Assembly: GCF_002001175.1 (NCBI RefSeq)
Contig: NZ_MUNT01000001.1
Location: 1,302,001-1,366,000 of the forward strand
DNA length: 64,000 nt
Reading direction: 5' to 3'
DNA from: Rhodanobacter sp. C03
GTDB lineage: Bacteria; Pseudomonadota; Gammaproteobacteria; Xanthomonadales; Rhodanobacteraceae
In this document: one piece after another, positions 892-26,295 of the stretch
Layout: each line of letters begins with the position of its first letter
How positions within the stretch are numbered: the stretch's first letter is position 1
Notes under the pieces: model-generated
What the model was told of the DNA's origin: nothing
The model's input: only the letters and a program-made list of their open reading frames with translations
Database searches by the model: none
Translations under genes and position numbers: made by a program

Positions 892-1572
892 GTGTTTGCC
901 GCGGAGGCCCAGCTCATTCCAATCCCATCGATCCAACGTGAACCAACAGACGGCATCAGCTTCTTCTTTGCCGTGCTGCCGGACGAGCAGGCTCGTTCGG
1001 GGCTCGCTGGCGTCAGCGAGCGTTTCCGCAAATCAGCGCGGATGATCGGCACACCGGTGGGTGCCCACAGCTACCATCTGACGCTTTGTCCCATGGGTCG
1101 ACCGGAGCGGATGTTGCCATCGCTGGAAGCCGCCTTGCTGGCTGCCGCCGGTACGGTACGGGCCAGTACATTCGACGTCACGCTGGATTCGGCCATGCGC
1201 TTCAGCGCCAAGGACGGCCGCTTCCCGTTTGTACTGTGCACGGACAGTGTCAGCGGCGCGTCGGTATTGAAGCTGCGCTGGGCCATCGCCGATGCGCAGC
1301 GCCGCATTGGGCTGTCGGTGAGTGGCGTCTCCAGCTACCTGCCGCATGTCGCGTTGCTGCATGGTCATGCGATCGACGCGATGCAGGAATCCATCACACC
1401 GATCTGCTGGACGGTGCGTGAGTTTGTGCTGATCCGCAGCTTCTTCGGCCAGGGCCACCAGGAGGTGGTCGCGCGCTGGCCGCTGGAGCCGTCGGTCGCT
1501 GCCCGGCGCCTTGGCGTGCTCGACCTTGCCGACCTGCCGGATCTGGGCGAACTACCTGCCGAAGACGAATGA
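892..1572 (+). CDS. 2'-5' RNA ligase family protein (2H phosphoesterase)
   Basis: The protein has the two-histidine layout of the LigT/ThpR superfamily, which acts on 2',3'-cyclic or 2',5' phosphodiester bonds in RNA: ISFFFAVLPDEQ near the start, YHLTLCPMG as motif 1 and PHVALLHG as motif 2. In motif 2 the usual Thr of HxTx is Ala, so activity may be altered. The end motif VREFVLIRS...Y/EVVARWPL resembles the second 2H gene at 18344. A GTG at 892 is taken as start because homology begins about 17 codons later; the frame stays open upstream to an ATG at 778, so the start is uncertain. Its last 21 bases overlap the convergent GGDEF-EAL gene. Confidence 0.75.
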   Translation: MFAAEAQLIPIPSIQREPTDGISFFFAVLPDEQARSGLAGVSERFRKSARMIGTPVGAHSYHLTLCPMGRPERMLPSLEAALLAAAGTVRASTFDVTLDSAMRFSAKDGRFPFVLCTDSVSGASVLKLRWAIADAQRRIGLSVSGVSSYLPHVALLHGHAIDAMQESITPICWTVREFVLIRSFFGQGHQEVVARWPLEPSVAARRLGVLDLADLPDLGELPAEDE

Positions 1573-3645
1573 TCTGTCGGCGTGCTGCGCGAGCCAGCTG
1601 CGGAATGCTGGTGCTGGCAGCGGATGACTTACCAGGTAGCCTTGGATGGCGTCGCAACCCAGTGCGGCAAGTGCATCCCGTTGCTCCTCGGTTTCGACGC
1701 CTTCGGCGACCACGAACAGCTTGAGGTGGTGCGCGATGGCGATCATGGCCTCGATGAACCGGTCGGGCGAACCGGCGTGCAGTACCTCGATGAACGTGCG
1801 ATCGATCTTGAGTTCGCGCACTGGAAGTTTTTTCAGGCTTTCCAGCGAGGTATAGCCGGAGCCGAAATCGTCCAGTGAGAACTGGAACCCGGCGGCATCC
1901 AGTTCGCGAATCTTGCTGGCCGCATCGTCCAGGTCGTGCAGGAAGGCGTTCTCGGTGATCTCCAGAGTGATGCGGCGCGGATCGACCCGCGTCGATGCCA
2001 CCGTTTCCTGCAGCGTGCGCACGAAGTCTTGGGCGAACAGTTGCCACGGACTGACGTTGATCGAGATGCGGGCCTGGGCATCTGCGGTTGGCCATGCTTC
2101 CAGCTCAAGGCAGGCCTGATGCAGGACGTCGCGTCCGATGCGATGGATCAGGCCGGTCTCCTCGGCGATCGGAATGAATTCGCCCGGCTCGATCAGACCA
2201 TGTTCCGGGTGTCGCCAGCGCAGCAGTGCCTCGGCGCCGATGAAGCGCCCCTGCATGTCGAGCTGGGGATGGTAATGCAGTTCGAATTCGCCGCGGTCGA
2301 GAGCAAGCCGGAGGCCCTTTTCCAGCAACAGGCGTCGATCGGCCTGCGCCTGCATCCCGCTCTCGAATACCACCGCGGTGTGCCGCCCGGCAGCCTTGGC
2401 GCGGTATAGCGCCATGTCGACCTGACGCAGCACGTGGTCGACATCCTGGGCCGTGCCAGGCAGTGGCGTGATGCCGGCGCTCACACCGACGACCAGGTCA
2501 TGGTTGCCGATACGCAGCGGCACGGCGAGCCGCGCCGTGATCTCGCGTGCGATGCGCAGGGCTGCATGAGCGGGTGGTTCGCCGGTGCCACCCAGTGGCT
2601 GCAGGTGCAGAGCGAACTCGTCGCCACCGAAACGGGCGAGGCAGGCATCGGCGGGGGCGGCTTCGCCGATGCGCGCGGCGACTCCTTTCAGCAGCTCGTC
2701 GCCCACGTCATGGCCGAGCGCTTCGTTGATGGTCTTGAAGTGATCGAGATCGAACAGGATAAGCGCGCCGTCTACCTGTTCCGTGGCGGCAAGTGCATGC
2801 TGCAGACGCTCGTGCATGTAGTGGCGATTCGGCAGGTGGGTCAGTTGATCATGATAGGCAAGGTGTCGCAGGTCCGCCTCGACGCCCTCCCGCCGCTGGG
2901 TTTCGCTGCGCAGTTCGCTGAGGCTGATCCCCAGTGCACGGGTTCGTTGCAGCAGCTCACGTCGGAGTACGCCACTCATCAGCAGTACCAGCACCAGGAA
3001 CGCCAGTGAGTCGAAGGTCAACCCACGTCCGCCGGCGTGATTGACTGTTTCGGCATGCACCGACGCGGCGGCCTGCACGATCAGGTACAGCGTGAGCGAC
3101 CAGACACGCGCACCACGGCCCCGGCGCCACAGCATGATGCAGCAGCACACCGCCCACAGGTAGCTGACATCCACCGCGGCGTAGTAGATGCCGGTAAGCA
3201 GGGGTGATTCGGTGCCGGCAAAGTGCTGCACGCTCTCGCCCCAGGGCAGCAGCAACGGCGAGCGTGGGGTGATGCTGGTGTATAGAAGGCTATACGGCGA
3301 ATCCAGGTTGATCACCAGCAGGGGGCCAAATACAAGCACGGCCAGCGTCACCCAGCGCCGCCAGTGCGCGAGATCCGTGTACAGACCGAAGAACCAGATA
3401 CCAGCCGGATAGATCAGGCAGGCGAAGGTGATCTGCGCGCGCATCAGCGCGCACGCCGTCGACAAGGTATCGGTCTGGTAGAGCGCTGCGGTCAGCGCCA
3501 GGTAGATCGAGAGCAGCAGGCTGAGGCAACCGAACGCGAGATACACACGGCCCTGACCACGCGAAGATCCCGCGAGCGTGGCGTGGATGCCGGCGAAGAA
3601 ACAGATGCCGCAGGCAATCAGCAGGCTGGATACATACAGAGTCAA
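1552..3645 (-). CDS. Membrane GGDEF-EAL protein (c-di-GMP turnover)
   Basis: A 697-residue protein. Residues 1-225 hold about seven hydrophobic segments, a likely membrane sensor; a short linker follows; GGDEF domain about 255-425; EAL domain about 440-690. The cyclase signature RFGGDEF (338-344) is intact, but the inhibitory RxxD site five residues upstream is absent (ADAC). In the EAL domain the key motifs are present: EALLRW (472-477), NVSPWQ, EITEN, DDFGSGYTSL, EGVETEEQ and QGYLVSHPLP. It therefore looks competent for phosphodiesterase activity, with cyclase activity possible and not product-inhibited. It is monocistronic and converges on the 2H gene with overlapping 3' ends. The signal sensed by the membrane domain is unknown. 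Confidence 0.93.
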   Translation of the reverse strand: MTLYVSSLLIACGICFFAGIHATLAGSSRGQGRVYLAFGCLSLLLSIYLALTAALYQTDTLSTACALMRAQITFACLIYPAGIWFFGLYTDLAHWRRWVTLAVLVFGPLLVINLDSPYSLLYTSITPRSPLLLPWGESVQHFAGTESPLLTGIYYAAVDVSYLWAVCCCIMLWRRGRGARVWSLTLYLIVQAAASVHAETVNHAGGRGLTFDSLAFLVLVLLMSGVLRRELLQRTRALGISLSELRSETQRREGVEADLRHLAYHDQLTHLPNRHYMHERLQHALAATEQVDGALILFDLDHFKTINEALGHDVGDELLKGVAARIGEAAPADACLARFGGDEFALHLQPLGGTGEPPAHAALRIAREITARLAVPLRIGNHDLVVGVSAGITPLPGTAQDVDHVLRQVDMALYRAKAAGRHTAVVFESGMQAQADRRLLLEKGLRLALDRGEFELHYHPQLDMQGRFIGAEALLRWRHPEHGLIEPGEFIPIAEETGLIHRIGRDVLHQACLELEAWPTADAQARISINVSPWQLFAQDFVRTLQETVASTRVDPRRITLEITENAFLHDLDDAASKIRELDAAGFQFSLDDFGSGYTSLESLKKLPVRELKIDRTFIEVLHAGSPDRFIEAMIAIAHHLKLFVVAEGVETEEQRDALAALGCDAIQGYLVSHPLPAPAFRSWLAQHADRSFVFGR

Positions 3646-3817
3646 GCGGCCACCGTTGGATTCCCCTGTGTGCCGCCGTCCAGCGGCGGTCCCCGGTTCG
3701 TGATGTTACGCCTCAGCCGATGGCTGCGGCCATCGGCCGGTCACGTTTCGGATGGCAGCCCAGTGCAGGCGATGATCTATATACTCGCAGCCCCGGAGTG
3801 CCCTGATAGATCGAGCC

Positions 3818-8701: not shown

Positions 8702-10105
8702 TTATGCCCCGATCGCATCGCCTGAGCGGCTGTCGTCGTCGGAGTTTTGCGGGTCAGCGACCAGGAACCGGTTGCCGCCAATTTTCTTGGCGCGGTACAT
8801 GGCGCCATCGGCATGTCGGATCAGCTGCTTGTTCTCGTTGCCATGCTCGGGAAAGACGGCGACGCCAAGGCTCGCGGATATCTGCAGGCGCTGTCCGGCC
8901 AGCTCGAACGGCTGGTTGAGCGAGGCGCGGATCTTCTCGGCGACGATCGATGCGTGTTCCGGCAACTTGATGCTGCTGAGTAGCACGACGAACTCATCGC
9001 CGCCGAGTCGCCCGACCGTATCCGAGTCGCGCACACAGTGCCTGATGCGATGGCCGACTTCCCGCAGCAGCAGGTCGCCGGTGGCATGGCCGTAGCCGTC
9101 ATTCACCTGCTTGAACCGGTCCAGGTCGATGTAGATGAGGGACAGCCGCTCACCGTCCAGCCGACTCTTGGCCAGCGCCGTTCGCAGGCGGTCATCGAAC
9201 AATCCTCGGTTGGGCAGATCGGTAAGCACGTCATGGCGTGCGATGTGGCGCAGCCAGGTTTCGTTCTGCTTGCGCTCGATGACGGCGGCGATCTGGGCCG
9301 AGACGAACTGCAGCAACACCTTGTCCTGTTCGGTATAGCGGACCGCGCCGGAGTAGCTCTGCACCACCAATGCGCCGATGACACCCTTTTGCGAGGTGAG
9401 CGGAACGCCAAGCCAGTCCAGCGAATCCTTGCCGACGACGGTGCCGGCCTGGTCGGACAGGGTCATCCGGGTATCCGGTGTCAACAACAATGCGTGGCCG
9501 CTACGGATGACTTCCGCGCTGAGGGTGCCGGAATCGAGCTTGCGCGGCATGGGTGCTTCGTCGTGTTCGTCGACGAAATAGGGGAAGCTCAGCTGATCTT
9601 CCTTGTCGTCGTAGAGGGCGACGAAGAAATTGGTGGCCGGCAGCAGGTCGCCGATGATCTGGTGGATATGCCGGAACAGCGCAAGCAGGTCTTCGGCCGA
9701 GTGGGTAGCCTCGGAAATGCCATGCAAGGCGGCCTGCATGGACTCGGCACGCTTGAGTTCGGTCACGTCACGCGCCACTGCGATCCTCAGCTGGTCGGCT
9801 TCCGACCAGCGGGCCGACCACATGATGTGGACGACCTTTCCATCCTTGCGTACATAGCGGTTCTCGAAATGGAGCTGGAGGTGCCCGCCCATGACCCTGG
9901 AGGCCGCCTCGATGGTTCTGGCCCGGTCCGCGGGGAATACCAGGTCGAGCATTTGCCGGCCGACCATTTCCTCCGGTGTGTAGCCGAAGATGCGCTCGCA
10001 TGCGGCACTGACGAACACAAAGCGCCCCTCAACGTCGACCATGCAGATCGCGTCGAGCAGGAGGTCCATGACATTCGTCAGGGGCGCGTAGGCGTTCTTT
10101 TCCAT
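8702..10105 (-). CDS. PAS-GAF-GGDEF diguanylate cyclase
   Basis: A 467-residue soluble protein. A PAS domain (about 10-118, with a PAC-like tail YVRKDGKVVHIMWSARW), then a GAF domain (about 125-280), then a GGDEF domain (about 300-455). The active motif GRLGGDEFVV (368-372 for GGDEF) and the inhibitory site RDSD five residues upstream are both intact, so it should make c-di-GMP under feedback control. No membrane segment is seen. The ATG at 10105 is preferred; an in-frame TTG at 10144 would add 13 residues with no homology. Confidence 0.92.
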   Translation of the reverse strand: MEKNAYAPLTNVMDLLLDAICMVDVEGRFVFVSAACERIFGYTPEEMVGRQMLDLVFPADRARTIEAASRVMGGHLQLHFENRYVRKDGKVVHIMWSARWSEADQLRIAVARDVTELKRAESMQAALHGISEATHSAEDLLALFRHIHQIIGDLLPATNFFVALYDDKEDQLSFPYFVDEHDEAPMPRKLDSGTLSAEVIRSGHALLLTPDTRMTLSDQAGTVVGKDSLDWLGVPLTSQKGVIGALVVQSYSGAVRYTEQDKVLLQFVSAQIAAVIERKQNETWLRHIARHDVLTDLPNRGLFDDRLRTALAKSRLDGERLSLIYIDLDRFKQVNDGYGHATGDLLLREVGHRIRHCVRDSDTVGRLGGDEFVVLLSSIKLPEHASIVAEKIRASLNQPFELAGQRLQISASLGVAVFPEHGNENKQLIRHADGAMYRAKKIGGNRFLVADPQNSDDDSRSGDAIGA

Positions 10106-10237
10106 CGGTGCATCGTGTGGCCGGACAAAGGTAGGCTCAACCAAGCACAGACCGTGCCGGGGAGTGGTTGGTTCGAAACGATCACCCGGCTTTGGCCTCC
10201 TGCGTGAAGTCCTGATGCACCACAGGCGCTGGCGGAC

Positions 10238-17505: not shown

Positions 17506-18312
17506 ATGAAGAATTTCCTGATCACCGGTGCGGCTTCCGGTATCGGCGCACAACTGGCCACAGCCTTGCTCCAGCGCGGCGAGCGTGTCTGCGCGGTGGA
17601 TATCAATCAGGTGCCGATGGAGGCGCTGAAGGCTGCGGCTGCAACGCCTGAACAATTGTGGATGGCATCGCTGGACGTGCGTGACGCGGCGGCATGGGAC
17701 GCCTTGCTCGATCAACTGAAGCAGCGCTGGGGCCAGCTCGATGTGCTGGTCAACGTGGCCGGCGTGCTCAAGCCCGGCTATTGCCATGAGTCCAGCGCGG
17801 CGGATGTGGACTTCCATATCGACATCAACACCAAGGGCACCATCCACGGTACGCGGGCGGCGGCGCGGCTGATGAAGGCGCAGGGCCACGGCCACATCGT
17901 CAACATCGCGTCGCTCGCCGGCATCGCGGCGATCCCGGGCCTGTCGCTTTACAGCGCGTCTAAATTCGCGGTGCGTGGCTATACGCTGGCGGTGGCGCAG
18001 GAGCTGCGCGATAGCGGAGTCAAGCTGACCGTGGTGTGTCCGGACGCGGTGCAGACGCCGATGCTGGATCTGCAGGTGGATTACGACCAGGCCGCGCTGA
18101 CGTTCTCCGGCAGCCGTTCGCTGACCACGCAGGAAGTGGTGGCGGCGATCCTCGATCGCGCACTGACCAGGGCGCCGCTCGAAATTACGCTACCGGCCAG
18201 TCGCGGTTTCCTCAGCAAGCTGGCCAGCTTCTTTCCCGGCCTCAGTGTGCTGGTGCTCGATGGGCTGCTCAAGAAGGGGCGCCAGAAGCAACAACAGACC
18301 AGGAAACACTAG
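17506..18312 (+). CDS. SDR family NAD(P)-dependent oxidoreductase
   Basis: A 268-residue classical short-chain dehydrogenase. The cofactor motif is TGAASGIG (residues 7-14), followed by VDIN (acid after strand 2, suggests NAD), NVAG in place of NNAG, the catalytic Ser in VNIASLAG and the YSASK catalytic pair. A C-terminal Lys/Gln-rich tail follows a hydrophobic stretch (FFPGLSVLVLDGLL). AAGGAAA lies upstream of the ATG. It is close-packed between the MBL-like gene and thpR. Substrate unknown. Confidence 0.9.
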   Translation: MKNFLITGAASGIGAQLATALLQRGERVCAVDINQVPMEALKAAAATPEQLWMASLDVRDAAAWDALLDQLKQRWGQLDVLVNVAGVLKPGYCHESSAADVDFHIDINTKGTIHGTRAAARLMKAQGHGHIVNIASLAGIAAIPGLSLYSASKFAVRGYTLAVAQELRDSGVKLTVVCPDAVQTPMLDLQVDYDQAALTFSGSRSLTTQEVVAAILDRALTRAPLEITLPASRGFLSKLASFFPGLSVLVLDGLLKKGRQKQQQTRKH

Positions 18313-18343
18313 CCACGCCTTCCGAGCGCGCTACATAGCATCC

Positions 18344-18964
18344 ATGGCCATTCGACAAACCCTGCCCGAAACCCACCAGTCCGATCTGCTCGGCGGCATC
18401 GCCTCGACCGAAGTCCACCGGTTGTTCTTCGCATTGATGCCGGACGACGCTACACGCGAGCGGCTGGCGGCTGTTGCCCACGGTCTCAAGGCGGCGCGCC
18501 CTGGACTGCGCGCACGCTGGATCCATCCGGACCGCTATCACGCCACCCTGCATTTCCTGGGCGACCACGCCGCGCTGCGACCGAGTCTGGTCGATGGCGC
18601 AGTGGCCGCAGCCGAGCAGGTAAGCGCCGCGGCGTTTGACTGGACGCTGGACAGCGCCAGTAGCTTCCGCGGCCGTGAACCCCCCTGCGTGCTGCACGGC
18701 GCCGAGGCTTGCGCGCCGCTGCAGCAACTGTGGCAGACACTGGGAAAGGCGCTGGTGCTGGCGGGACAGGGCGCACGCCTCGAACGCAGCTTCACCCCGC
18801 ATGTCACGCTGGCCTACAGCCACGGGGTGATGCTGCCGGAGCTGGCGGTCGAATCCGTGACCTGGCCGGTGGCGGAGTTTGTGCTGATCCATCACGTGGT
18901 CGGGCAGGGTGCATACCAGATCCTCGGGCGCTGGCCGCTGATTGGCGAGGCTGTCGTTACATGA
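18344..18964 (+). CDS. thpR: RNA 2',3'-cyclic phosphodiesterase (ThpR/LigT family)
   Basis: A 206-residue 2H phosphoesterase. Both HxTx motifs are complete: RYHATLHFLGDH and PHVTLAYSHG. The N-terminal HRLFFALMPDD and the C-terminal FVLIHHVVGQGAYQILGRWPL are typical of ThpR, which opens 2',3'-cyclic phosphates at RNA ends. Its stop codon overlaps the start of the borosin-type methyltransferase gene by 4 bp (ATGA), so the two are translationally coupled. No clear Shine-Dalgarno is seen for thpR. It is related to the 2H gene at 892. Confidence 0.9.
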   Translation: MAIRQTLPETHQSDLLGGIASTEVHRLFFALMPDDATRERLAAVAHGLKAARPGLRARWIHPDRYHATLHFLGDHAALRPSLVDGAVAAAEQVSAAAFDWTLDSASSFRGREPPCVLHGAEACAPLQQLWQTLGKALVLAGQGARLERSFTPHVTLAYSHGVMLPELAVESVTWPVAEFVLIHHVVGQGAYQILGRWPLIGEAVVT

Positions 18965-19797
18965 ATTCGATGAGCGAACCCACCATGGATGCAACCCGTT
19001 CCACTGGAAGTCTGGTCTGCGTAGGCCTGGGCATGACGCTGGGCTCCCATCTCGGCCCGCTGGCGCGCAGCCACATCGAACAATCCGACGTGGTGTTTGC
19101 CGGACTCTCAGACGGCATCGTGGAATTGTGGTTGCACAAGATGCACGCGGACGTGCGCAGCCTGCAGCCGTACTACCACGAGGGCAAGTCGCGCATGCAG
19201 ACCTACCGGCAGATGGTCGATGCCATCCTCGCCGAGGTGCGTGCGGGCAAAAAAGTATGCGGCGTGTTCTACGGCCATCCCGGTGTGTTCGCCTGGGCGC
19301 CGCACAAGTCGATCGAGGTGGCCCGCAGCGAGGGTTATCCAGCGCACATGGAACCAGGCATTTCCGCCGAGGATTGCCTGTATGCCGATCTCGGCATCGA
19401 TCCGGGCACGTATGGCTGTCAGCACTACGAGGCCAGCCAGTTGCTGTTCTACCAGCGCCGGATCGACCCGACCGCCTACCTGGTGCTGTGGCAGGTGGGT
19501 CTGGTCGGTGATCAGTCGCTGGCGCGCTTCTCCACCGGCTCCGCTTACAAGCAGGTGCTGGTCGATGTGCTGGCGCGCGACTACCCGTTGGAGCATGAGA
19601 TAACGCTCTACCGCGCGCCGACGTTGCCGATTCAGCACGCGCGGATCGAGCGGCTGCCGCTTGGTTCGTTGCCACAGGCCGAGGTAGGCATGGCCGATAC
19701 GATGGTGCTGCCACCCGTGCATCCCATGCAGGTCGATCACGAGATCCGGGCGCGGTTGTCGGCGCTGGATCGGGCCACGGCTGGTCAGGAGCCATGA
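18961..19797 (+). CDS. SonM-like peptide N-methyltransferase (split borosin)
   Basis: A 278-residue protein of the tetrapyrrole-methylase fold, but not a porphyrin enzyme: it matches the borosin alpha-N-methyltransferases such as SonM of Shewanella, which methylate backbone amides of a separate precursor peptide. Matching parts are GSLVCVGLGMTLG (16-28, SAM site), QPYYHEGKSRMQTYRQMV (69-86, with Tyr71/72, Arg78, Tyr82 as the Tyr-Arg-Tyr catalytic set), YGHPGVFAWAPH (104-115), MEPGISAEDCLYADLGIDPG (130-149), HYEASQLLFY (155-164) and LPIQHARIERLPL (222-234). Unlike fungal OphMA there is no fused core at the C-terminus, so the precursor must be separate: two candidates follow. Methylation is inferred from family. 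Confidence 0.87.
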   Translation: MNSMSEPTMDATRSTGSLVCVGLGMTLGSHLGPLARSHIEQSDVVFAGLSDGIVELWLHKMHADVRSLQPYYHEGKSRMQTYRQMVDAILAEVRAGKKVCGVFYGHPGVFAWAPHKSIEVARSEGYPAHMEPGISAEDCLYADLGIDPGTYGCQHYEASQLLFYQRRIDPTAYLVLWQVGLVGDQSLARFSTGSAYKQVLVDVLARDYPLEHEITLYRAPTLPIQHARIERLPLGSLPQAEVGMADTMVLPPVHPMQVDHEIRARLSALDRATAGQEP

Positions 19798-19990
19798 ATT
19801 CCGATTTGTCGTGTGCAATGTCGGATCGATGGTGTATTTTCAGCGCGACAGGGTGGCAAAAGGCTCACTGCTTGCCGTAAGGCGATGCGGCAGGAACGCA
19901 ACGGGGGAAGACGAGGAGCCTGCAAGACGCTGCAGCGTCCATTGCCCAGATGGCCAGCTCTCAACCATCCAGATATCAGGGGGATGACCG
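19798..19990 (+). promoter_or_regulatory. Leader region before precursor 1, with 14-bp palindrome
   Basis: A 193-bp gap between methyltransferase and precursor 1. It contains the perfect palindrome GACGCTGCAGCGTC at 19926-19939. No confident promoter is seen. It ends with a strong Shine-Dalgarno, CAGGGGG, before the precursor ATG at 19991. The element may separate high precursor expression from low enzyme expression (inference). Confidence 0.4.
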
Positions 19991-20293
19991 ATGTTCGATG
20001 TGATCGATTTTCTTGAAACTGTCGGCCAGGACGCACAGTGGCGTCATGCCGACTCGGACGCACTGGCGGTCGCATTGGCTGGGGCGCAGATTGATCCGGA
20101 GTTGCGCGTGGCGATCCTTGCCAGGGATGAGCAGGGGTTGCAGGCGTTGCTGGGGCAGGTTCCCTTCTGTTGCCTGATCAACCCTGCCAAGCCAGGCGAG
20201 GAACAGGAAGAGTGTGACGGCAACTGCAAAGAGGGTGAGGAGAAGAAGGACGACAAGGACAAGGAGAAGGACAAGAGAAGGGATGGAGATTAA
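19991..20293 (+). CDS. Candidate borosin precursor peptide 1 (SonA-like leader)
   Basis: A 100-residue peptide. Residues 1-56 match the borosin-binding leader of SonA: VIDFLETVGQDAQ (4-16), then AQIDPELRVAILARDEQGLQ (32-51) and ALLGQ (52-56). The part in the core position is VPFCCLINPAKP (57-68), with Cys60 and Cys61. The tail is highly charged (Glu/Asp/Lys) with two more Cys (75, 79). A strong Shine-Dalgarno (CAGGGGG) and its place just after the methyltransferase support the role. Length and landmark positions (GQDAQ, LLGQ, Cys60, Pro65) are the same as in precursor 2. Which residues are methylated and where the peptide is cut are unknown. Confidence 0.8.
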   Translation: MFDVIDFLETVGQDAQWRHADSDALAVALAGAQIDPELRVAILARDEQGLQALLGQVPFCCLINPAKPGEEQEECDGNCKEGEEKKDDKDKEKDKRRDGD

Positions 20294-20345
20294 AGACCAG
20301 GTTTTACAACTTGCCGTTCCTGCGCCTGCGACCACTGACTAGCTC

Positions 20346-22112
20346 ATGGACCAGGCGGGCAGGTACAGGTTGATATTCGCGTGCCGCGCGCTTCTGCTTT
20401 TTTTTGTAGCGGGCGCGGTTGCTGCGCCTGCGCCTGCATCCAACGATCCTGCGCAGTTGCTTAGACAAGCTGAAAGCGTCGAGCCTTCCAACCGCGCCGA
20501 GTTCAACGAGCTCATGGGTCGACTCGATGAGGTCGCGACGAAGCTCTCGCCGCAACAGAAGTTGCATCTGCGCTACCTCGAAGCTCGGCAGATCGCCTTT
20601 GCGGGCAACTACGCCGCCGCGTTGCCGTCGTTGACTGCGCTTGCCGATCAAACTACGGACCCCGTTCTGGCGTTTCGCGCCAGTGCCACTGTGATCGACT
20701 TGCTGGTAGCCCAATCCCGCTATGAAGAAGCCTTTGCCAGGCTCAATCCGTTGCTGGACCAGTTGCCAAAAATGAAGGAAACCGATGTCCGCATGCAGGG
20801 ACTCGGTGTTGCGGCGCAGTTGTACAACGAAGCCGGCCAATACGATGCGTCCACTCGTTATGCCGATCAAATGGTCAAGGAAAGCACTGACGCTTCAAGT
20901 GCATGTAGGGGCTGGTTCTACAAATCCGATGCACTGTTTGAAAGTGGCGGAACGCGGTTGTCCGCCGATCAGCTCCGCGATGGCACGGTGGCATGCGGAA
21001 AGGCAGGGGATACACTTTTTTCTCTCAGCTTTCAGTACTTGCTGGCGGGTTTCGACATGCGACAGGGGCGCTCTGAGTCGGCAATCCATGTGCTGCAAGC
21101 GAGCTACCCCAAGGTGCTGCGTGCAGGCTTTCCACCGCAAATTTCGGAGTTTGAGTCCACGCTGGCCAAGGCTTACTGGAAGGGTGGTGATCTCGCCTCT
21201 GCGACGAAATTTGCCAACAACGCCTTGGCTACCAATGCCAACAGACCGTATTCGGAGTCGACGGCCAACGCCTATCAAGTACTTTACGAAGTCGACAAGA
21301 AGGCGGGCGACAGCAATGCTGCCCTGGCAAACCTTGAAAAGTACGTCGCTGCCCACGATGGCTACGTGAGTCGACTCAGCGCGAAGGTACTCGCTTATCA
21401 AATCGTCAAGCAGCAGGTGCTGGCGAAAAAGCTGCAGATCGATACGCTGAACAAGCAGAACCAGATCCTCACGCTGCAGCAGAAGCTCAACAAGAAAGCC
21501 GTGGAAGCCAGCCGGCTGTATATCGTGCTGTTGCTGATAGTGCTGGCGTCGATCGCGTTATGGACCTACAAGGTCAAGCGCTCGCAACTGCGCTTCATGA
21601 AACTGGCGCGGCGCGATGGCCTCACCGGCATCTTCAACCGCCAGCATTTCGTCAATGAGGCCGAGCTGCTGTTGCAGTACTGCCGCAAATCATCACGTGA
21701 CGCCTGTCTGGTGCTGATCGACCTGGATCATTTCAAGGCCGTCAACGACACCTATGGTCACGCAGTGGGCGATCGCGTGCTGCAGCGTGCCGTCGAGGCC
21801 TGCAAGAGCTGCCTGCGCTCGACCGATATTTTTGGCCGTCTCGGTGGCGAGGAGTTCGGCATCCTGCTGCCCGAGTGCACGCTGGCGCAGGTTCTCGTTC
21901 TGGCCGAGCAGATCCGCCTGACGATTGCGACCGCTTCCGCCGGCGATGGCGCTCCTGGCATTCCCATCTCCGCCAGCTTCGGTGTTTCCACCACGGCGCA
22001 TTCCGGTTACGAACTGCGCCAGCTGCTGATCCACGCCGACGAGGCGCTGTACCGGGCCAAGCGCGAAGGCCGCAATCGGGTCAGCGTGATCGATCACCCG
22101 GAATGTGCCTGA
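20346..22112 (+). CDS. Periplasmic-TPR diguanylate cyclase 1, paired with precursor 1
   Basis: A 588-residue membrane protein. Signal peptide/N-terminal helix 10-27; a periplasmic helical-repeat (TPR-like) domain about 35-345 (AQLYNEAGQYDASTRYADQMVK, AKAYWKGGDLASATKFANNAL are repeat-like); coiled coil about 352-388; one membrane helix about 391-408 (YIVLLLIVLASIALW); cytoplasmic GGDEF domain to the end. The active site is GRLGGEEFGIL (GGEEF 500-504), the inhibitory RSTD is at 491-494, so it should be an active, feedback-controlled cyclase. It begins 52 bp after precursor 1, with no clear Shine-Dalgarno. TPR domains can bind peptides; that it senses the processed precursor is inference. Confidence 0.88.
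   Translation: MDQAGRYRLIFACRALLLFFVAGAVAAPAPASNDPAQLLRQAESVEPSNRAEFNELMGRLDEVATKLSPQQKLHLRYLEARQIAFAGNYAAALPSLTALADQTTDPVLAFRASATVIDLLVAQSRYEEAFARLNPLLDQLPKMKETDVRMQGLGVAAQLYNEAGQYDASTRYADQMVKESTDASSACRGWFYKSDALFESGGTRLSADQLRDGTVACGKAGDTLFSLSFQYLLAGFDMRQGRSESAIHVLQASYPKVLRAGFPPQISEFESTLAKAYWKGGDLASATKFANNALATNANRPYSESTANAYQVLYEVDKKAGDSNAALANLEKYVAAHDGYVSRLSAKVLAYQIVKQQVLAKKLQIDTLNKQNQILTLQQKLNKKAVEASRLYIVLLLIVLASIALWTYKVKRSQLRFMKLARRDGLTGIFNRQHFVNEAELLLQYCRKSSRDACLVLIDLDHFKAVNDTYGHAVGDRVLQRAVEACKSCLRSTDIFGRLGGEEFGILLPECTLAQVLVLAEQIRLTIATASAGDGAPGIPISASFGVSTTAHSGYELRQLLIHADEALYRAKREGRNRVSVIDHPECA
21405..22100 (+). repeat. Duplicated segment, copy 1 (3' half of cyclase 1)
   Basis: From the coiled coil to the end of the GGDEF domain, this stretch is nearly identical in DNA to 23782-24477, while the upstream TPR-coding halves have diverged. 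It is direct evidence for tandem duplication of the precursor-cyclase cassette, with later homogenisation or stronger constraint on the 3' half. Confidence 0.8.
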
Positions 22113-22412
22113 CCGGCCGAGTTCCCGGTGCGAGTGACGGCGTTTGCCGCTGACATTCGATTTTCGAGCGCTGCGTTGCTTGAACCAACGGCATAGGACT
22201 TCCGAAAGAGCATGGCGTGGTGGCACGCCGTGCCGAGCCGGCGATCATTGCCGTCGATATTGAGGAAATATGCGGCTGTCACCGGCAGACGCCTGTGATA
22301 TGCCACAATTCGGCATATCCGAGGGGGATAGGGGCCTTGGTCTAACGTATCTGGTCAAATCTCTTGACCATCGCGGTGCGTTTTCAAACAACCAACTGTC
22401 AGGGGGCAGGCA
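22113..22412 (+). promoter_or_regulatory. Region before precursor 2 with two perfect hairpins
   Basis: A 300-bp gap without a gene. GATATGCC (22297-22304) pairs with GGCATATC (22312-22319) around a 7-base loop; TGGTCAA (22352-22358) pairs with TTGACCA (22364-22370) around a 5-base loop. Neither has a T-tract. They could be operators, a weak terminator for cyclase 1 or mRNA leader structures of precursor 2. CAGGGGG, the same Shine-Dalgarno as for precursor 1, precedes the ATG at 22413. Confidence 0.5.
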
Positions 22413-22715
22413 ATGACGGACGTGATCGATTTTCTGGAACAGATGGGACAGGACGCGCAGTTGCGTCATGCATCGCAGGATGAAGTGGAACTGGCGTTGA
22501 CCAGTGCGGAGATTGCCCCGGAGTTGCAGGCGGCCATTCTCGCCAACGATCCGGCGCAGCTGGAAACGTTGCTGGGGCAAGCTCCTGTTTGCGCTATTTA
22601 CTTGCCAGGCAAAGAGGATGAAGAGGAAGGCGACGAGGACGAGGAGACTCCGTCAAAGGAGCCGGATGAGGCCCCCGGGCACAGTGGGCTTCGCGCCGTG
22701 ATCGCGGCGGCCTAG
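22413..22715 (+). CDS. Candidate borosin precursor peptide 2 (SonA-like leader)
   Basis: A 100-residue paralogue of precursor 1. The leader VIDFLEQMGQDAQLRHA (4-20), AEIAPELQAAILANDPAQLE (32-51) and TLLGQ (52-56) is closer to SonA than precursor 1 (DAQL kept). The core-position segment is APVCAIYLPGK (57-67), with hydrophobic/beta-branched residues as in known N-methylated borosin cores. A very acidic stretch (68-85) follows, and the tail ends in a hydrophobic GLRAVIAAA, unlike the Lys-rich tail of precursor 1. The gene stops 3 bp before the start of cyclase 2, so the pair is almost surely translationally coupled. Confidence 0.8.
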   Translation: MTDVIDFLEQMGQDAQLRHASQDEVELALTSAEIAPELQAAILANDPAQLETLLGQAPVCAIYLPGKEDEEEGDEDEETPSKEPDEAPGHSGLRAVIAAA

Positions 22716-22718
22716 TCG

Positions 22719-24497
22719 ATGCTTCGCTCGGGCAGCCAGCGCTGGGCATGCGTTGCCGGCTGGACCTTGCTCGTGGCCATGCTGATGGGTACGGCCGTTG
22801 CGGCCGTGCCCACCGCTGATGACCCTGCGCAACTGCTCAAGCAGGCGGACAGCGTCAGAACGTCGGATCATCCCGAGTTCCTGCAACTGATGAAGCGGCT
22901 CGGCGCCGAGGCGGCCACGCTCTCCCCGCAGCAGCGTATGCATCTGCGCTACCTCCAGGCATGGGCAGTCGGTTATCAAGGCGATTACGAAACCGCCACG
23001 CCGCTGTTGAACGCGGTCATCGCGGAGTCCACGGATGCCACGTTGCGGTTTCGCGCGGGTACGACCCTGGTGAACAATCTTGCGATTGGATCCCACTATG
23101 AGGAAGCGTTTGCGCAGGTGAGCCAGTTGCTGGACCAGCTGCCGCAGATTGTCGACAAGGATGCCCGCATACAGGGGCTGGGCGTTGCCGCGTTCCTGTA
23201 CAACGAGGCTGGCCAATACGATCTTGGCCTGAACTACGCGACCCAGATGGTTCGGGAAAATCCGGTCGGGGATGGTAACTGCAAAGGCAGGATGATCCAG
23301 GTCCAGTCGCTCTATGAGAGCGGCAAGTTCGCGACATTCGGCAAGCAGTCCCGCGAGGCCATTGATGCCTGCAACAAGGCATCGGAATTCCTCTACGCCA
23401 ACGCGGTTCGCTTCTATGTGGCGAGTTTCGACATTCAATACGGTCAATCGTCCGCGGCGATCAAGCTTTTGCAGAAGAACTATGCGGATGTCCGGCGCAT
23501 CGACTACGGGGAACTGACCTCCGAGTTTGATGCCACGCTGGCGCGTGCGTACTGGGACGAAGGTGAGACTGCGCTGGCGCAACAGTACGCACACGCCGCG
23601 GTTGATGGTGGCGTCAAGCACGAGTTCACCAAGTCGCGGACCAGCGCCTATGAATTGTTGTATCTGATCAGCAAACAGCAGGGTGACCTGGATGCCGCGT
23701 TGACCTATCACGAAAAATACACGGCGGCTGACAAGGGCTATTTGAACGAGGTCAGTGCGAAGGCGCTGGCCTACCAGACCGTCAAGCAGCAGTTGCTGGC
23801 GAAAAAGCTGCAGATCGACACGCTGAACAAGCAGAACCAGATCCTCTCGCTGCAACAGGCGCTCGCCAAAAAGGCCGCGGTAGCCAGCCGGCTGTATATC
23901 GTGCTGCTGCTGCTCGTGCTGGCGTCGATCGCCTTTTGGACCTACAAGATCAAGCGCTCGCAGCTGCGCTTCATGAAACTGGCCCGGCGCGATGGTCTCA
24001 CCGGCATCTTCAACCGCCAGCATTTCGTCAACGAGGCCGAGCTGCAGTTGCAGTACTGCCGGAAATCATCACGTGGTGCCTGTCTTGTTCTGATCGATCT
24101 GGATCATTTCAAGGCCGTCAACGATACCCATGGCCATGCGGTGGGCGATCGCGTGCTGCTGCGTGCGGTCGAGGCGTGCAAGACCTATCTGCGTTCGACC
24201 GACATCTTCGGCCGCCTCGGTGGCGAGGAGTTCGGCATCCTGCTGCCGGAGTGCACGCTGGAACAGGTTCTCGTGCGCGCCGAGCAGATCCGCGTGGCGA
24301 TCGCCACCGCTTCCGCGGGCGAGGACGCTCCCGGCATTCCCATCTCCGCCAGCTTCGGTGTTTCCAGCGTGGCGCATTCCGGTTACGAACTGCGTCAGAT
24401 GCTAATCCACGCCGACGAGGCGCTGTACCGGGCCAAGCGCGAAGGCCGCAACCGGGTCAGCGTGGTTGACCATTCGGCAATGAGTTTGGCGAGCTGA
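22719..24497 (+). CDS. Periplasmic-TPR diguanylate cyclase 2, paired with precursor 2
   Basis: A 592-residue paralogue of cyclase 1 with the same order: N-terminal signal/anchor helix (WTLLVAMLMGTAVAAV), periplasmic helical-repeat domain about 35-350 (AAFLYNEAGQYDLGLNYATQ, ARAYWDEGETALAQQYAHAA), coiled coil, membrane helix (YIVLLLLVLASIAFW), cytoplasmic GGDEF domain with RSTD and GRLGGEEF (501-505). Both catalytic and inhibitory sites are intact. The TPR half differs clearly from cyclase 1 whereas the membrane and GGDEF half is nearly identical, as expected if the two proteins keep the same output but have different ligands. Confidence 0.88.
   Translation: MLRSGSQRWACVAGWTLLVAMLMGTAVAAVPTADDPAQLLKQADSVRTSDHPEFLQLMKRLGAEAATLSPQQRMHLRYLQAWAVGYQGDYETATPLLNAVIAESTDATLRFRAGTTLVNNLAIGSHYEEAFAQVSQLLDQLPQIVDKDARIQGLGVAAFLYNEAGQYDLGLNYATQMVRENPVGDGNCKGRMIQVQSLYESGKFATFGKQSREAIDACNKASEFLYANAVRFYVASFDIQYGQSSAAIKLLQKNYADVRRIDYGELTSEFDATLARAYWDEGETALAQQYAHAAVDGGVKHEFTKSRTSAYELLYLISKQQGDLDAALTYHEKYTAADKGYLNEVSAKALAYQTVKQQLLAKKLQIDTLNKQNQILSLQQALAKKAAVASRLYIVLLLLVLASIAFWTYKIKRSQLRFMKLARRDGLTGIFNRQHFVNEAELQLQYCRKSSRGACLVLIDLDHFKAVNDTHGHAVGDRVLLRAVEACKTYLRSTDIFGRLGGEEFGILLPECTLEQVLVRAEQIRVAIATASAGEDAPGIPISASFGVSSVAHSGYELRQMLIHADEALYRAKREGRNRVSVVDHSAMSLAS
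23782..24477 (+). repeat. Duplicated segment, copy 2 (3' half of cyclase 2)
   Basis: Second copy of the conserved segment described at 21405-22100, offset by 2377 bases and co-linear. Differences are mostly synonymous. Confidence 0.8.
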
Positions 24498-24585
24498 GTT
24501 CGCGCTGACACGGGCGACATGCGTGGACAGCAGCGGATGGTCGCGCTAAAACAGCGGCTTGTCCCCCGGCTGCTGGAGTCCTCCG

Positions 24586-26295
24586 ATGCGCGCCATGCCC
24601 ACCGTTTTCCTGTTCGCCCTGGCTACCGGCGCAGGCTCGTTGATGGCGGCGACGCCAGCGACTTCCACCCAGCCGACGTCCGTCGAGGTCGCGCTGGCGC
24701 CGCAGATCAATGCCGCCGATTTCGCGCTGTTCGACAAGACGCTCAGCTCGGATGCGTTCGGCGGGCGCAAGCCCGGCACGATCGGCGGCCAGCGCACCAC
24801 GGACTGGCTGGTCGAGCAGTTCAAGCGCATGGGCCTGCAGCCGGGCAACCACGGTTCCTGGTATCAGGCGGTGCCGGCGGATTCCACCCAGTTGTTGAAT
24901 ACCGATGTGACGCTGGACATCACGGCGCACGGCAAGCCGGCGAAGTTCGCCTATCGCACCGACATGATGGCCGAGACGCTGCAGGCGAAGGCCCAGGTCG
25001 ATCTGAAGAACTCGCCGGTGGTGTTCCTGGGCTACGGCGTCGATGCGCCGAACTGGCACTGGAACGATTACCGGGGCGTCGACTTGAAGGGCAAGACGGT
25101 GATCGTGCTGGTCAATGATCCCGGCTTCGCCACCGGTGATCCCAAACTGTTCAACGGCCGCGCGATGACTTACTACGGCCGCTGGACCTACAAGTATGCG
25201 GAGGCGGCACTGAAGGGCGCGGCCGCGTGCTTCATCGTGCATACCAGCGACGCGGCGGCCGGCTACCCGTTCAGCGTGCTGCAGAACAGCGGCAGCGGGC
25301 CGCAGTTGAGCCTGCCGGCCAGCGTGGATCCGTCACCGCGGCTGCCGGTGGCCGGCTGGCTGACCCGCGATGCCGCCACGCGCTTGTTCGCCGATGCCGG
25401 CCTCGACTTTGGCCAGTTGGAAAAGGCCGCGGCGCAGCCGGGCTTCAAACCGGTGCCATTGGACGCCACCGCATCGATCAGCCTGCGCAACAAGATCGGC
25501 CACCTCGAATCGAAGAATGTGGTGGCGATGGTCAAGGGCAGCACGAAGCCCGATGAGGCGGTGATCTACACCGCGCATTGGGATCACCTGGGCACCGATC
25601 CCACGCGCAAAGGGCATCAGGTTTTCAGTGGCGCGATCGACAACGGCACCGGCCTGACCATGCTGCTGGAGCTGGCCGATGCGTTCGCCCATCAACAAAC
25701 GCCGCCACCGCGCAGCGTGCTGTTCTTCATGCCCACGATGGAGGAGTCGGGCCTGCTCGGTTCGCAGTATTACGCAGCCAAGCCGGTGTTCCCGCTGGAC
25801 AAGACGGTGGCCGATATCGCGGTCGATGCACTGCCAATCATCGGCCGTGCCCATGACATGACAGTGATCGGCAAGGGCCAGTCGCAACTCGAGGACATGC
25901 TGGCCGATGTGCTGAAGACGCAGGGCCGGGTGACCTCGCCGGAAACCACGCCGGAGAACGGCTTCTACTTTCGCTCCGATCATTTCAGCTTCGCCAAGGC
26001 CGGCGTGCCGGCGATGCTGGCCAGCTCGGGACTTGATCTGCTCGATGGCGGCAAGGCGGCCGGACAGAAGGGGGCGGATGACTATACGGCGCACCACTAT
26101 CACACGCCGAACGACGTGTTCAATCCGGACTGGGATTACTCCGGCATCCTCGAGGATACCCAGGCGTTGTACGAGTTGGGTCAGCACCTGAGCCAGGTCG
26201 GCGTGTGGCCGACGTGGTATCCCGACAGCCCGTTTCGCGCCAAGCGCGAGGCGATGATGCCGCACGACAAAGCCGGCACCAACGCGACGAAATGA
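24586..26295 (+). CDS. Exported M28 family zinc aminopeptidase-like protein
   Basis: A 569-residue protein with a signal peptide (MRAMPTVFLFALATGAGSLMA). A protease-associated region (about 130-280) is inserted before the catalytic domain. All M28 metal and catalytic residues are seen: YTAHWDHLG (His and catalytic Asp), IDNGTGLTMLLELA (bridging Asp), PTMEESGLLGS (Glu-Glu), VDALPI (Asp) and RSDHFSFAKAGVP (His). Likely a periplasmic or secreted aminopeptidase. TGGAG precedes the ATG. It follows cyclase 2 by 88 bp on the same strand; a role in trimming the precursor peptides is conceivable but not shown. Confidence 0.9.
   Translation: MRAMPTVFLFALATGAGSLMAATPATSTQPTSVEVALAPQINAADFALFDKTLSSDAFGGRKPGTIGGQRTTDWLVEQFKRMGLQPGNHGSWYQAVPADSTQLLNTDVTLDITAHGKPAKFAYRTDMMAETLQAKAQVDLKNSPVVFLGYGVDAPNWHWNDYRGVDLKGKTVIVLVNDPGFATGDPKLFNGRAMTYYGRWTYKYAEAALKGAAACFIVHTSDAAAGYPFSVLQNSGSGPQLSLPASVDPSPRLPVAGWLTRDAATRLFADAGLDFGQLEKAAAQPGFKPVPLDATASISLRNKIGHLESKNVVAMVKGSTKPDEAVIYTAHWDHLGTDPTRKGHQVFSGAIDNGTGLTMLLELADAFAHQQTPPPRSVLFFMPTMEESGLLGSQYYAAKPVFPLDKTVADIAVDALPIIGRAHDMTVIGKGQSQLEDMLADVLKTQGRVTSPETTPENGFYFRSDHFSFAKAGVPAMLASSGLDLLDGGKAAGQKGADDYTAHHYHTPNDVFNPDWDYSGILEDTQALYELGQHLSQVGVWPTWYPDSPFRAKREAMMPHDKAGTNATK

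What the first reader, a model, noticed from the sequence alone, without database searches (positions are those of the whole stretch)
18961..24497. Split borosin (N-methylated RiPP) locus with two precursor peptides and two dedicated diguanylate cyclases
Seen: a tetrapyrrole-methylase-fold protein whose motifs follow SonM-type borosin methyltransferases and not porphyrin enzymes, then two 100-residue proteins with a shared leader containing DF, GQDAQ, PEL, AIL, D, L and LLGQ in the order found in the SonA precursor, each followed at once by a membrane GGDEF protein. Known: borosins carry backbone N-methylations placed by such enzymes, and split forms with separate precursor occur in proteobacteria. 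Inference: this is a two-peptide borosin locus whose products are tied to c-di-GMP signalling. I know of no described borosin with paired cyclases.
Basis: partly seen in the sequence, partly recalled or inferred. Interest (0 to 1): 0.93.

Follow-up and report, generated by a model that had tools for sequence, protein, structure and literature searches.

The report
N-methylated peptides paired with sensor cyclases
This bacterium carries a split-borosin gene set in which one enzyme is predicted to methylate the backbone of two small peptides, each encoded directly before its own membrane sensor with a diguanylate cyclase domain, and comparison with relatives suggests that the peptides are likely the signals those sensors read.

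Summary
The enzyme is a SonM-type alpha-N-methyltransferase (3e-78; seven catalytic or lock residues tested, all present). A profile of the two 100-aa peptides and relatives finds SonA in the PDB, and the modelled peptide 2 finds it by fold. Each peptide precedes a signal-peptide/TPR/TM/GGDEF protein. This is not a one-off: of 134 distinct methyltransferase genes with full flanks, 127 have precursor and GGDEF gene beside them. So does the prototype: where SonM is 100% identical to the crystal protein, the cyclase frame opens right after the sonA stop. Three results point to the peptide as sensor input: (1) in 14 two-pair loci the precursor tracks the sensor half of its own cyclase (2 of 8192 swaps as good), while GGDEF halves are homogenised; (2) in another clade a homologous TPR sensor sits on a hybrid histidine kinase, so peptide and sensor stay while the output changes; (3) the sensor model aligns to Rap pheromone receptors. 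Binding, methylation, release and export are untested, and a larger correlation test did not single out the sensor. A published figure of borosin types already shows a GGDEF domain, so the bare association is not wholly new; the sensor reading is.

The parts
18961..19797 (+). split-borosin alpha-N-methyltransferase (SonM type)
   Evidence: SonM 7ltc_A 3.3e-78; SonM Y58, R67, Y71, Y93, F99, W166, Q167 present as Y72, R78, Y82, Y104, F110, W177, Q178; E146 as E157, E173 as D184
19991..20293 (+). precursor peptide 1 (BBD leader residues 1-55, core, charged tail)
   Evidence: member of the BBD profile set; leader shared with peptide 2
20159..20194 (+). putative core of peptide 1, residues 57-68 VPFCCLINPAKP (methylated positions unknown)
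   Evidence: position by alignment to SonA G55/L63/I65; inference
20346..22112 (+). diguanylate cyclase 1: signal peptide, TPR sensor, long helix with TM, GGDEF
   Evidence: PF00990 1.7e-43 at residues 422-578, TPR_19 1.3e-4, just under its cut-off; GGEEF intact
22413..22715 (+). precursor peptide 2
   Evidence: AlphaFold2 model: five helices in residues 2-53; best 20 Foldseek hits are SonA chains, E 0.16 and above; profile A3 finds SonA 1e-5
22581..22616 (+). putative core of peptide 2, residues 57-68 APVCAIYLPGKE
   Evidence: alignment to SonA; inference
22719..24497 (+). diguanylate cyclase 2: signal peptide, TPR sensor, long helix with TM, GGDEF
   Evidence: PF00990 4.6e-41 at residues 423-579; AlphaFold2 mean pLDDT 88.2
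22824..23678 (+). modelled TPR solenoid of cyclase 2 (residues 36-320), predicted extracytoplasmic sensor
   Evidence: invariant C188 and C218 in 44 sequences
21417..22109 (+). half of cyclase 1 homogenised with cyclase 2 (residues 358-588)
   Evidence: third-position identity 0.70-0.93 here against 0.27-0.57 upstream
23793..24494 (+). matching homogenised half of cyclase 2

Best explanation
The locus is a type IV split-borosin system whose methyltransferase is predicted to N-methylate the backbone of two precursor peptides, each of which likely acts, once released, as the specific ligand of the TPR-sensor diguanylate cyclase encoded directly downstream of it. Shown here: the enzyme and precursor families, the conserved methyltransferase-precursor-sensor order, the signal peptide/TPR/TM/GGDEF architecture by sequence and model, co-inheritance of precursor with the sensor half in two-pair loci, and exchange of GGDEF for a histidine kinase behind a homologous sensor. 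Inferred: the enzyme methylates hydrophobic core residues just before the near-invariant proline; a protease frees the core; it reaches the periplasm by an unknown route; it binds inside the TPR solenoid; binding moves the roughly 100-residue helix through the membrane and changes GGDEF dimerisation, hence c-di-GMP. Two pairs in one genome would give two separate inputs to one output.
Against: No methylation, release, export or binding was shown. In the 60 named loci examined no further gene family recurs widely, so no dedicated exporter or protease was seen (clusters not annotated by domain). Over 145 pairs the partial rank correlation core-sensor (0.118) hardly exceeds core-GGDEF (0.074), and in a 110-pair subset GGDEF is higher (0.150 against 0.237). 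In 27 locus comparisons with clear sensor matching the core agreed in 27, but GGDEF agreed in 24 as well. Precursor and sensor half are neighbours on the DNA, so linkage alone could hold them together; leader and tail track the sensor too (r 0.64 and 0.84). Six of 14 further sensor-cyclase regions have no detectable precursor. TPR solenoids are common; the sensor matches APPBP2 and APC5 with higher Z than Rap.
Confidence: 0.6

Rival explanations
1. The borosin is a secreted natural product with an outside target, and the adjacent cyclase senses something else (envelope state, a nutrient) and only regulates its production or the cell's lifestyle.
For: Most characterised RiPPs are exported products (recalled); no binding data exist; six further sensor-cyclase regions lack a detectable precursor.
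Against: In two-pair loci each precursor tracks the sensor half, and hardly the GGDEF half, of the cyclase beside it; in three regions precursor and cyclase sit together with no methyltransferase in the fetched stretch (L280, L284, L286).
Confidence: 0.2
2. The precursor protein itself, not a freed peptide, is the partner: the folded BBD or its methylated tail regulates the cyclase as a protein subunit, as RcbA does for the TPR-GGDEF protein RcbB in Vibrio vulnificus.
For: Tight pairing (3-base gap); BBD tracks sensor r 0.64, 20 of 8192; RcbA relieves TPR inhibition of RcbB (PMC12282931, abstract and passages).
Against: The sensor has a predicted signal peptide and two invariant cysteines, so it is predicted outside the cytoplasm, while the aligned precursors start at the BBD without a signal peptide.
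Confidence: 0.12
3. The grouping is only an old, inherited gene order without a shared function.
For: Most loci surveyed are from one family or order; precursor and sensor half are neighbours, so linkage explains part of the co-inheritance.
Against: Kept in Rhodanobacteraceae, Steroidobacteraceae, Rheinheimera and the sonMA genome; same presence and absence in 60 genomes; output exchanged while sensor and precursor stay.
Confidence: 0.08

Closest known systems
SonM-SonA, type IV split borosin of Shewanella oneidensis (PMC8429565; passages read)
   Same: separate methyltransferase and BBD precursor, the tested catalytic and lock residues, five-helix leader; its genome also has a TPR-GGDEF gene directly downstream
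   Different: window has two precursor-cyclase pairs, long charged tails after the core, and proline at the place of methylated I65
Borosin types drawn with a GGDEF domain (PMC11395268 Fig. 1, legend only read)
   Same: a GGDEF domain already noted among borosin architectures
   Different: which type, and whether fused or adjacent, could not be seen; no sensor role appears in the passages read
RcbA-RcbB TPR/TPR-GGDEF operon of Vibrio vulnificus (PMC12282931; abstract and passages)
   Same: TPR domain holds back a GGDEF domain and an operon partner relieves it
   Different: partner is a TPR protein, not a RiPP precursor; the word methyltransferase does not occur in that text
Phr-Rap peptide pheromone receptors (structures 4i9c, 8rsv)
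   Same: TPR solenoid aligned over about 310 residues
   Different: Rap proteins are cytoplasmic and Phr peptides unmodified (recalled); fold similarity is not function
Agr and ComX-ComP peptide/sensor-kinase systems (recalled)
   Same: variable peptide next to variable sensor half, constant output half
   Different: other protein families, other peptide chemistry

Membership tests
type IV split borosin | discrete SonM-type alpha-N-methyltransferase | tested here: met
   3.3e-78 to SonM; best precorrin methylase in the same search 0.15
type IV split borosin | catalytic and lock residues Y58, R67, Y71, Y93, F99, W166, Q167 | tested here: met
   identical in the window and in all 156 aligned sequences (window counted twice, one row dropped); E146 kept in 150 of 156; E173 is D in the window and in 129 of 156
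type IV split borosin | separate precursor with five-helix borosin binding domain | tested here: met
   profile hits SonA 1e-5; five helices in residues 2-53; SonA best by Foldseek, TMt 0.61-0.76 in the best ten, all E above 0.1
type IV split borosin | backbone N-methylation of the core | not testable with these tools
   needs co-expression and mass spectrometry
diguanylate cyclase | GGDEF domain with intact GG[DE]EF | tested here: met
   PF00990 1.7e-43 and 4.6e-41; GGEEF in both
diguanylate cyclase | c-di-GMP synthesis | not testable with these tools
   needs an enzyme assay
peptide-sensing TPR receptor (Rap-like) | TPR solenoid fold | tested here: met
peptide-sensing TPR receptor (Rap-like) | binds a cognate peptide | not testable with these tools
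   partner specificity only indirect

The most novel reading that the evidence does not exclude
[quoted passage not shown] The window holds two such channels feeding nearly identical GGDEF halves.
Probability: 0.45. Interest if true: 0.92.

Novelty: new variant of a known kind. Interest (0 to 1): 0.82.

Why it matters
Split borosins have a known enzyme and crystal structures; in 2021 the describing paper said that none of the pathways was yet tied to a final natural product (PMC8429565, passage). A dedicated sensor beside nearly every such locus surveyed, the prototype included, gives a direct and testable role: a ribosomal, N-methylated peptide as input to c-di-GMP or phosphorelay signalling. 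It would also supply ligands for this group of TPR cyclases and kinases, for which I found no known input.

Tried and rejected
No relative of the methyltransferase in viral contigs. Rfam gives no match at gathering score in the window, so no c-di-GMP riboswitch was found. The promoter scan found none. Pepsin-type proteases, considered because I recall a paper on shewasin and borosins, are in 3 of 60 relatives and not in the window genome; the search of G510 also found none, but nothing rang in its controls. One C39 peptidase lies elsewhere in the window genome. A comparison across nine two-pair loci (r 0.81 core against sensor) was set aside because I had sorted the pairs by a core motif; the exact swap test replaces it. 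An early partial Mantel test on 98 of 153 pairs looked better (0.22 against 0.01) than the fuller, rank-based one on 145 of 153; only the fuller one is relied on. Of the 153 pairs, seven had no GG[DE]EF pattern where expected and one no anchored core. My first count of 131 GGDEF loci included L223, whose gene is a kinase; the recount gives 130, the other numbers unchanged. Foldseek on the whole cyclase was filled by GGDEF hits in the 50 rows shown. Imani 2022 and Lee 2024 are not held; Cho 2022 was not looked up; all three are known to me only by citation and recall, so they may already report the GGDEF neighbours. Library searches: borosin with diguanylate 0 papers, with di-GMP 0, with GGDEF 1, SO1480 0.
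Full report
Observation. Peptide 1 ends 52 bases before cyclase 1 and peptide 2 ends 3 bases before cyclase 2. Both peptide genes follow the same TCAGGGGG element and are similar at DNA level (local score 95 against a shuffled maximum of 28 in 50).

Family membership. In the PDB sequence search the enzyme matches SonM at 3.3e-78, OphMA-type enzymes at 1e-50 to 1e-45, and a precorrin methylase only at 0.15. SonM residues Y58, R67, Y71, Y93, F99, W166 and Q167 are kept in the window and in all 156 aligned sequences (window counted twice, one of 156 rows dropped); E146 is kept in 150, and E173 is D in the window. Peptide 1 alone finds nothing in the PDB, but a profile of 51 relatives, without any Shewanella row, has SonA as its seven best hits, 1e-5 to 5.7e-5. 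The AlphaFold2 model of peptide 2 has five helices in residues 2-53 (pLDDT blocks 82-92 there), and the best 20 Foldseek hits are SonA chains, though with E-values of 0.16 and above. SonA L63 and I65 are methylated in the prototype (passages of PMC8429565, PMC11285071); residue 65 here is proline, at least 90% conserved in the 51, so the methylation pattern must differ.

Organism. Named relatives are Rhodanobacter, Dyella, Frateuria, Luteibacter, Fulvimonas, Tahibacter and others (the best 80 of 542 confirmed loci were kept, so near relatives dominate). The closest are Rhodanobacter, so the window is Rhodanobacter or a close relative.

Linkage. I collected 156 distinct methyltransferase genes from four sets. 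Of these, 134 have at least 4.5 kb on both sides. Within -5 to +6 kb on the same strand: precursor 128, GGDEF 130, both 127, GGDEF with a detectably similar sensor half 124, order MT-precursor-GGDEF 122. The seven without both are L209, L084, L215, L217, L222, L223, L225. By eye and by Pfam, L222 and L223 have a divergent precursor and a TPR histidine kinase, L217 a TPR-GGDEF and L084 a GGDEF protein, each after a doubtful small ORF, L209 a precursor followed by an RHS-repeat protein, L215 precursor and cyclase on the other strand, and L225 nothing recognisable. The window genome has 21 GGDEF genes in 3.86 Mb, so a same-strand GGDEF within 11 kb is expected in about 3% of places (my arithmetic). 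In 60 relatives the enzyme and the sensor half occur in the same 45 genomes (8 of 19 genera) and are absent from the same 15; 36 of the 60, the window's own included, are one genus, so these are not independent.

The prototype. All 20 loci that I fetched from the places listed have a GGDEF gene beside the enzyme. The main text of the SonM paper has no word beginning with 'cyclase'.

Pairing. In the window the two cyclases agree at third positions in only 0.27-0.57 over residues 1-357 and in 0.70-0.93 over 358-588: the output halves look homogenised while the sensor halves do not. Across loci, GGDEF distances within a locus are smaller than between loci at equal sensor distance (12 pairs median 0.17, 3015 pairs median 0.42, p 1.6e-7, pairs not independent). 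For the 14 loci with two pairs I swapped precursors within loci in all 8192 patterns: core-sensor r 0.72 (2 as good, the observed included), tail-sensor 0.84 (2), BBD-sensor 0.64 (20), core-GGDEF 0.27 (439), BBD-GGDEF 0.03 (3108). In 27 of 91 locus comparisons with clear sensor matching, 12 of them with swapped gene order, the core matching agreed in 27, the GGDEF matching in 24. Against this, the partial rank test on 145 of 153 pairs gave core-sensor 0.118 and core-GGDEF 0.074, and 0.150 against 0.237 in 110 of them. Linkage of neighbouring DNA can explain the block; partner specificity is therefore suggested, not proven.

Output exchange. Two of the exceptions led to the strongest clue. I fetched 40 more regions, chosen by hand from the places listed, best matches first and then down the list. 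With L222-L224 that makes 43 loci: the nearest output gene within 4.3 kb downstream is GGDEF in 25, a histidine kinase in 17 and neither in 1 (L312). A BBD-type precursor was found in 15 of the 17 kinase loci, two of which supplied queries. All 17 kinase proteins have an N-terminal hydrophobic stretch and TM; TPR, HisKA, HATPase_c and receiver domains were found in 11 of 11 scanned. The kinase-type and cyclase-type sensors align over 350 columns, E 7.6e-23, 15% identity. In a 65-row tree the 19 kinase-associated enzymes form one side of one branch (94/94, 96% of bootstraps). One genus (g27) holds both types (L217 against L223, L224, L290, L291). So methyltransferase, precursor and TPR sensor are the constant unit, and the output is exchangeable.

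Trans units. Of 14 further regions with a sensor-cyclase away from the first hits, seven have a precursor beside it; in L280, L284 and L286 no methyltransferase is in the fetched stretch. Six others have no detectable precursor, and L289 is cut by a contig end. This fits a methyltransferase acting in trans but also shows that the pairing is not absolute.

Missing steps. Among 60 of the 80 named loci, clustering of neighbouring frames showed no further widely shared gene family (clusters not annotated by domain, other genera not surveyed this way), so no dedicated exporter or protease was seen. An M28 peptidase gene follows in many Rhodanobacter loci. A weak pepsin-type match (4.5e-5) lies about 550 bases from the enzyme gene in G059.

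Prior art. PMC11395268 (abstract, introduction, passages, legends read) lists a GGDEF domain in its figure of borosin types. The key classification papers are not held. Within the library no paper joins borosin with diguanylate or di-GMP. I therefore put forward as new the sensor reading, the pairing test and the kinase variant, not the mere presence of GGDEF.

Noticed in passing
L222:10025-12916, L223:10371-13628, L290-L298, L300-L302: Borosin loci in which the cyclase is replaced by a TPR hybrid histidine kinase with receiver and in several cases Hpt domains.
   Followed up: yes
L256:6106-8951: Genome with SonM 100% identical to the crystal protein: the frame of a TPR-GGDEF gene opens with TTG directly after the sonA stop codon.
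   Followed up: yes
window 1555-3705 and 8705-10237, - strand: Two more GGDEF frames, not found by the sensor search; the 64-kb window holds 4 of the 21 GGDEF genes of the genome.
   Followed up: no
window 24559-26295: Peptidase gene (M28-like by my reading, not scanned) kept downstream of the pairs in many Rhodanobacter loci; possible processing enzyme.
   Followed up: partly
window 18245-18964: ThpR-like RNA cyclic phosphodiesterase (TIGR02258) whose stop codon overlaps the methyltransferase ATG by four bases.
   Followed up: no
L080 (G059:C39:13919-14512): Weak pepsin-type aspartic protease match beside the methyltransferase gene.
   Followed up: no
L209:9690-13832: RHS-repeat protein in the place of the cyclase after methyltransferase and precursor.
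   Followed up: no
L321: Five BBD hits between methyltransferase and GGDEF domain in one locus.
   Followed up: no
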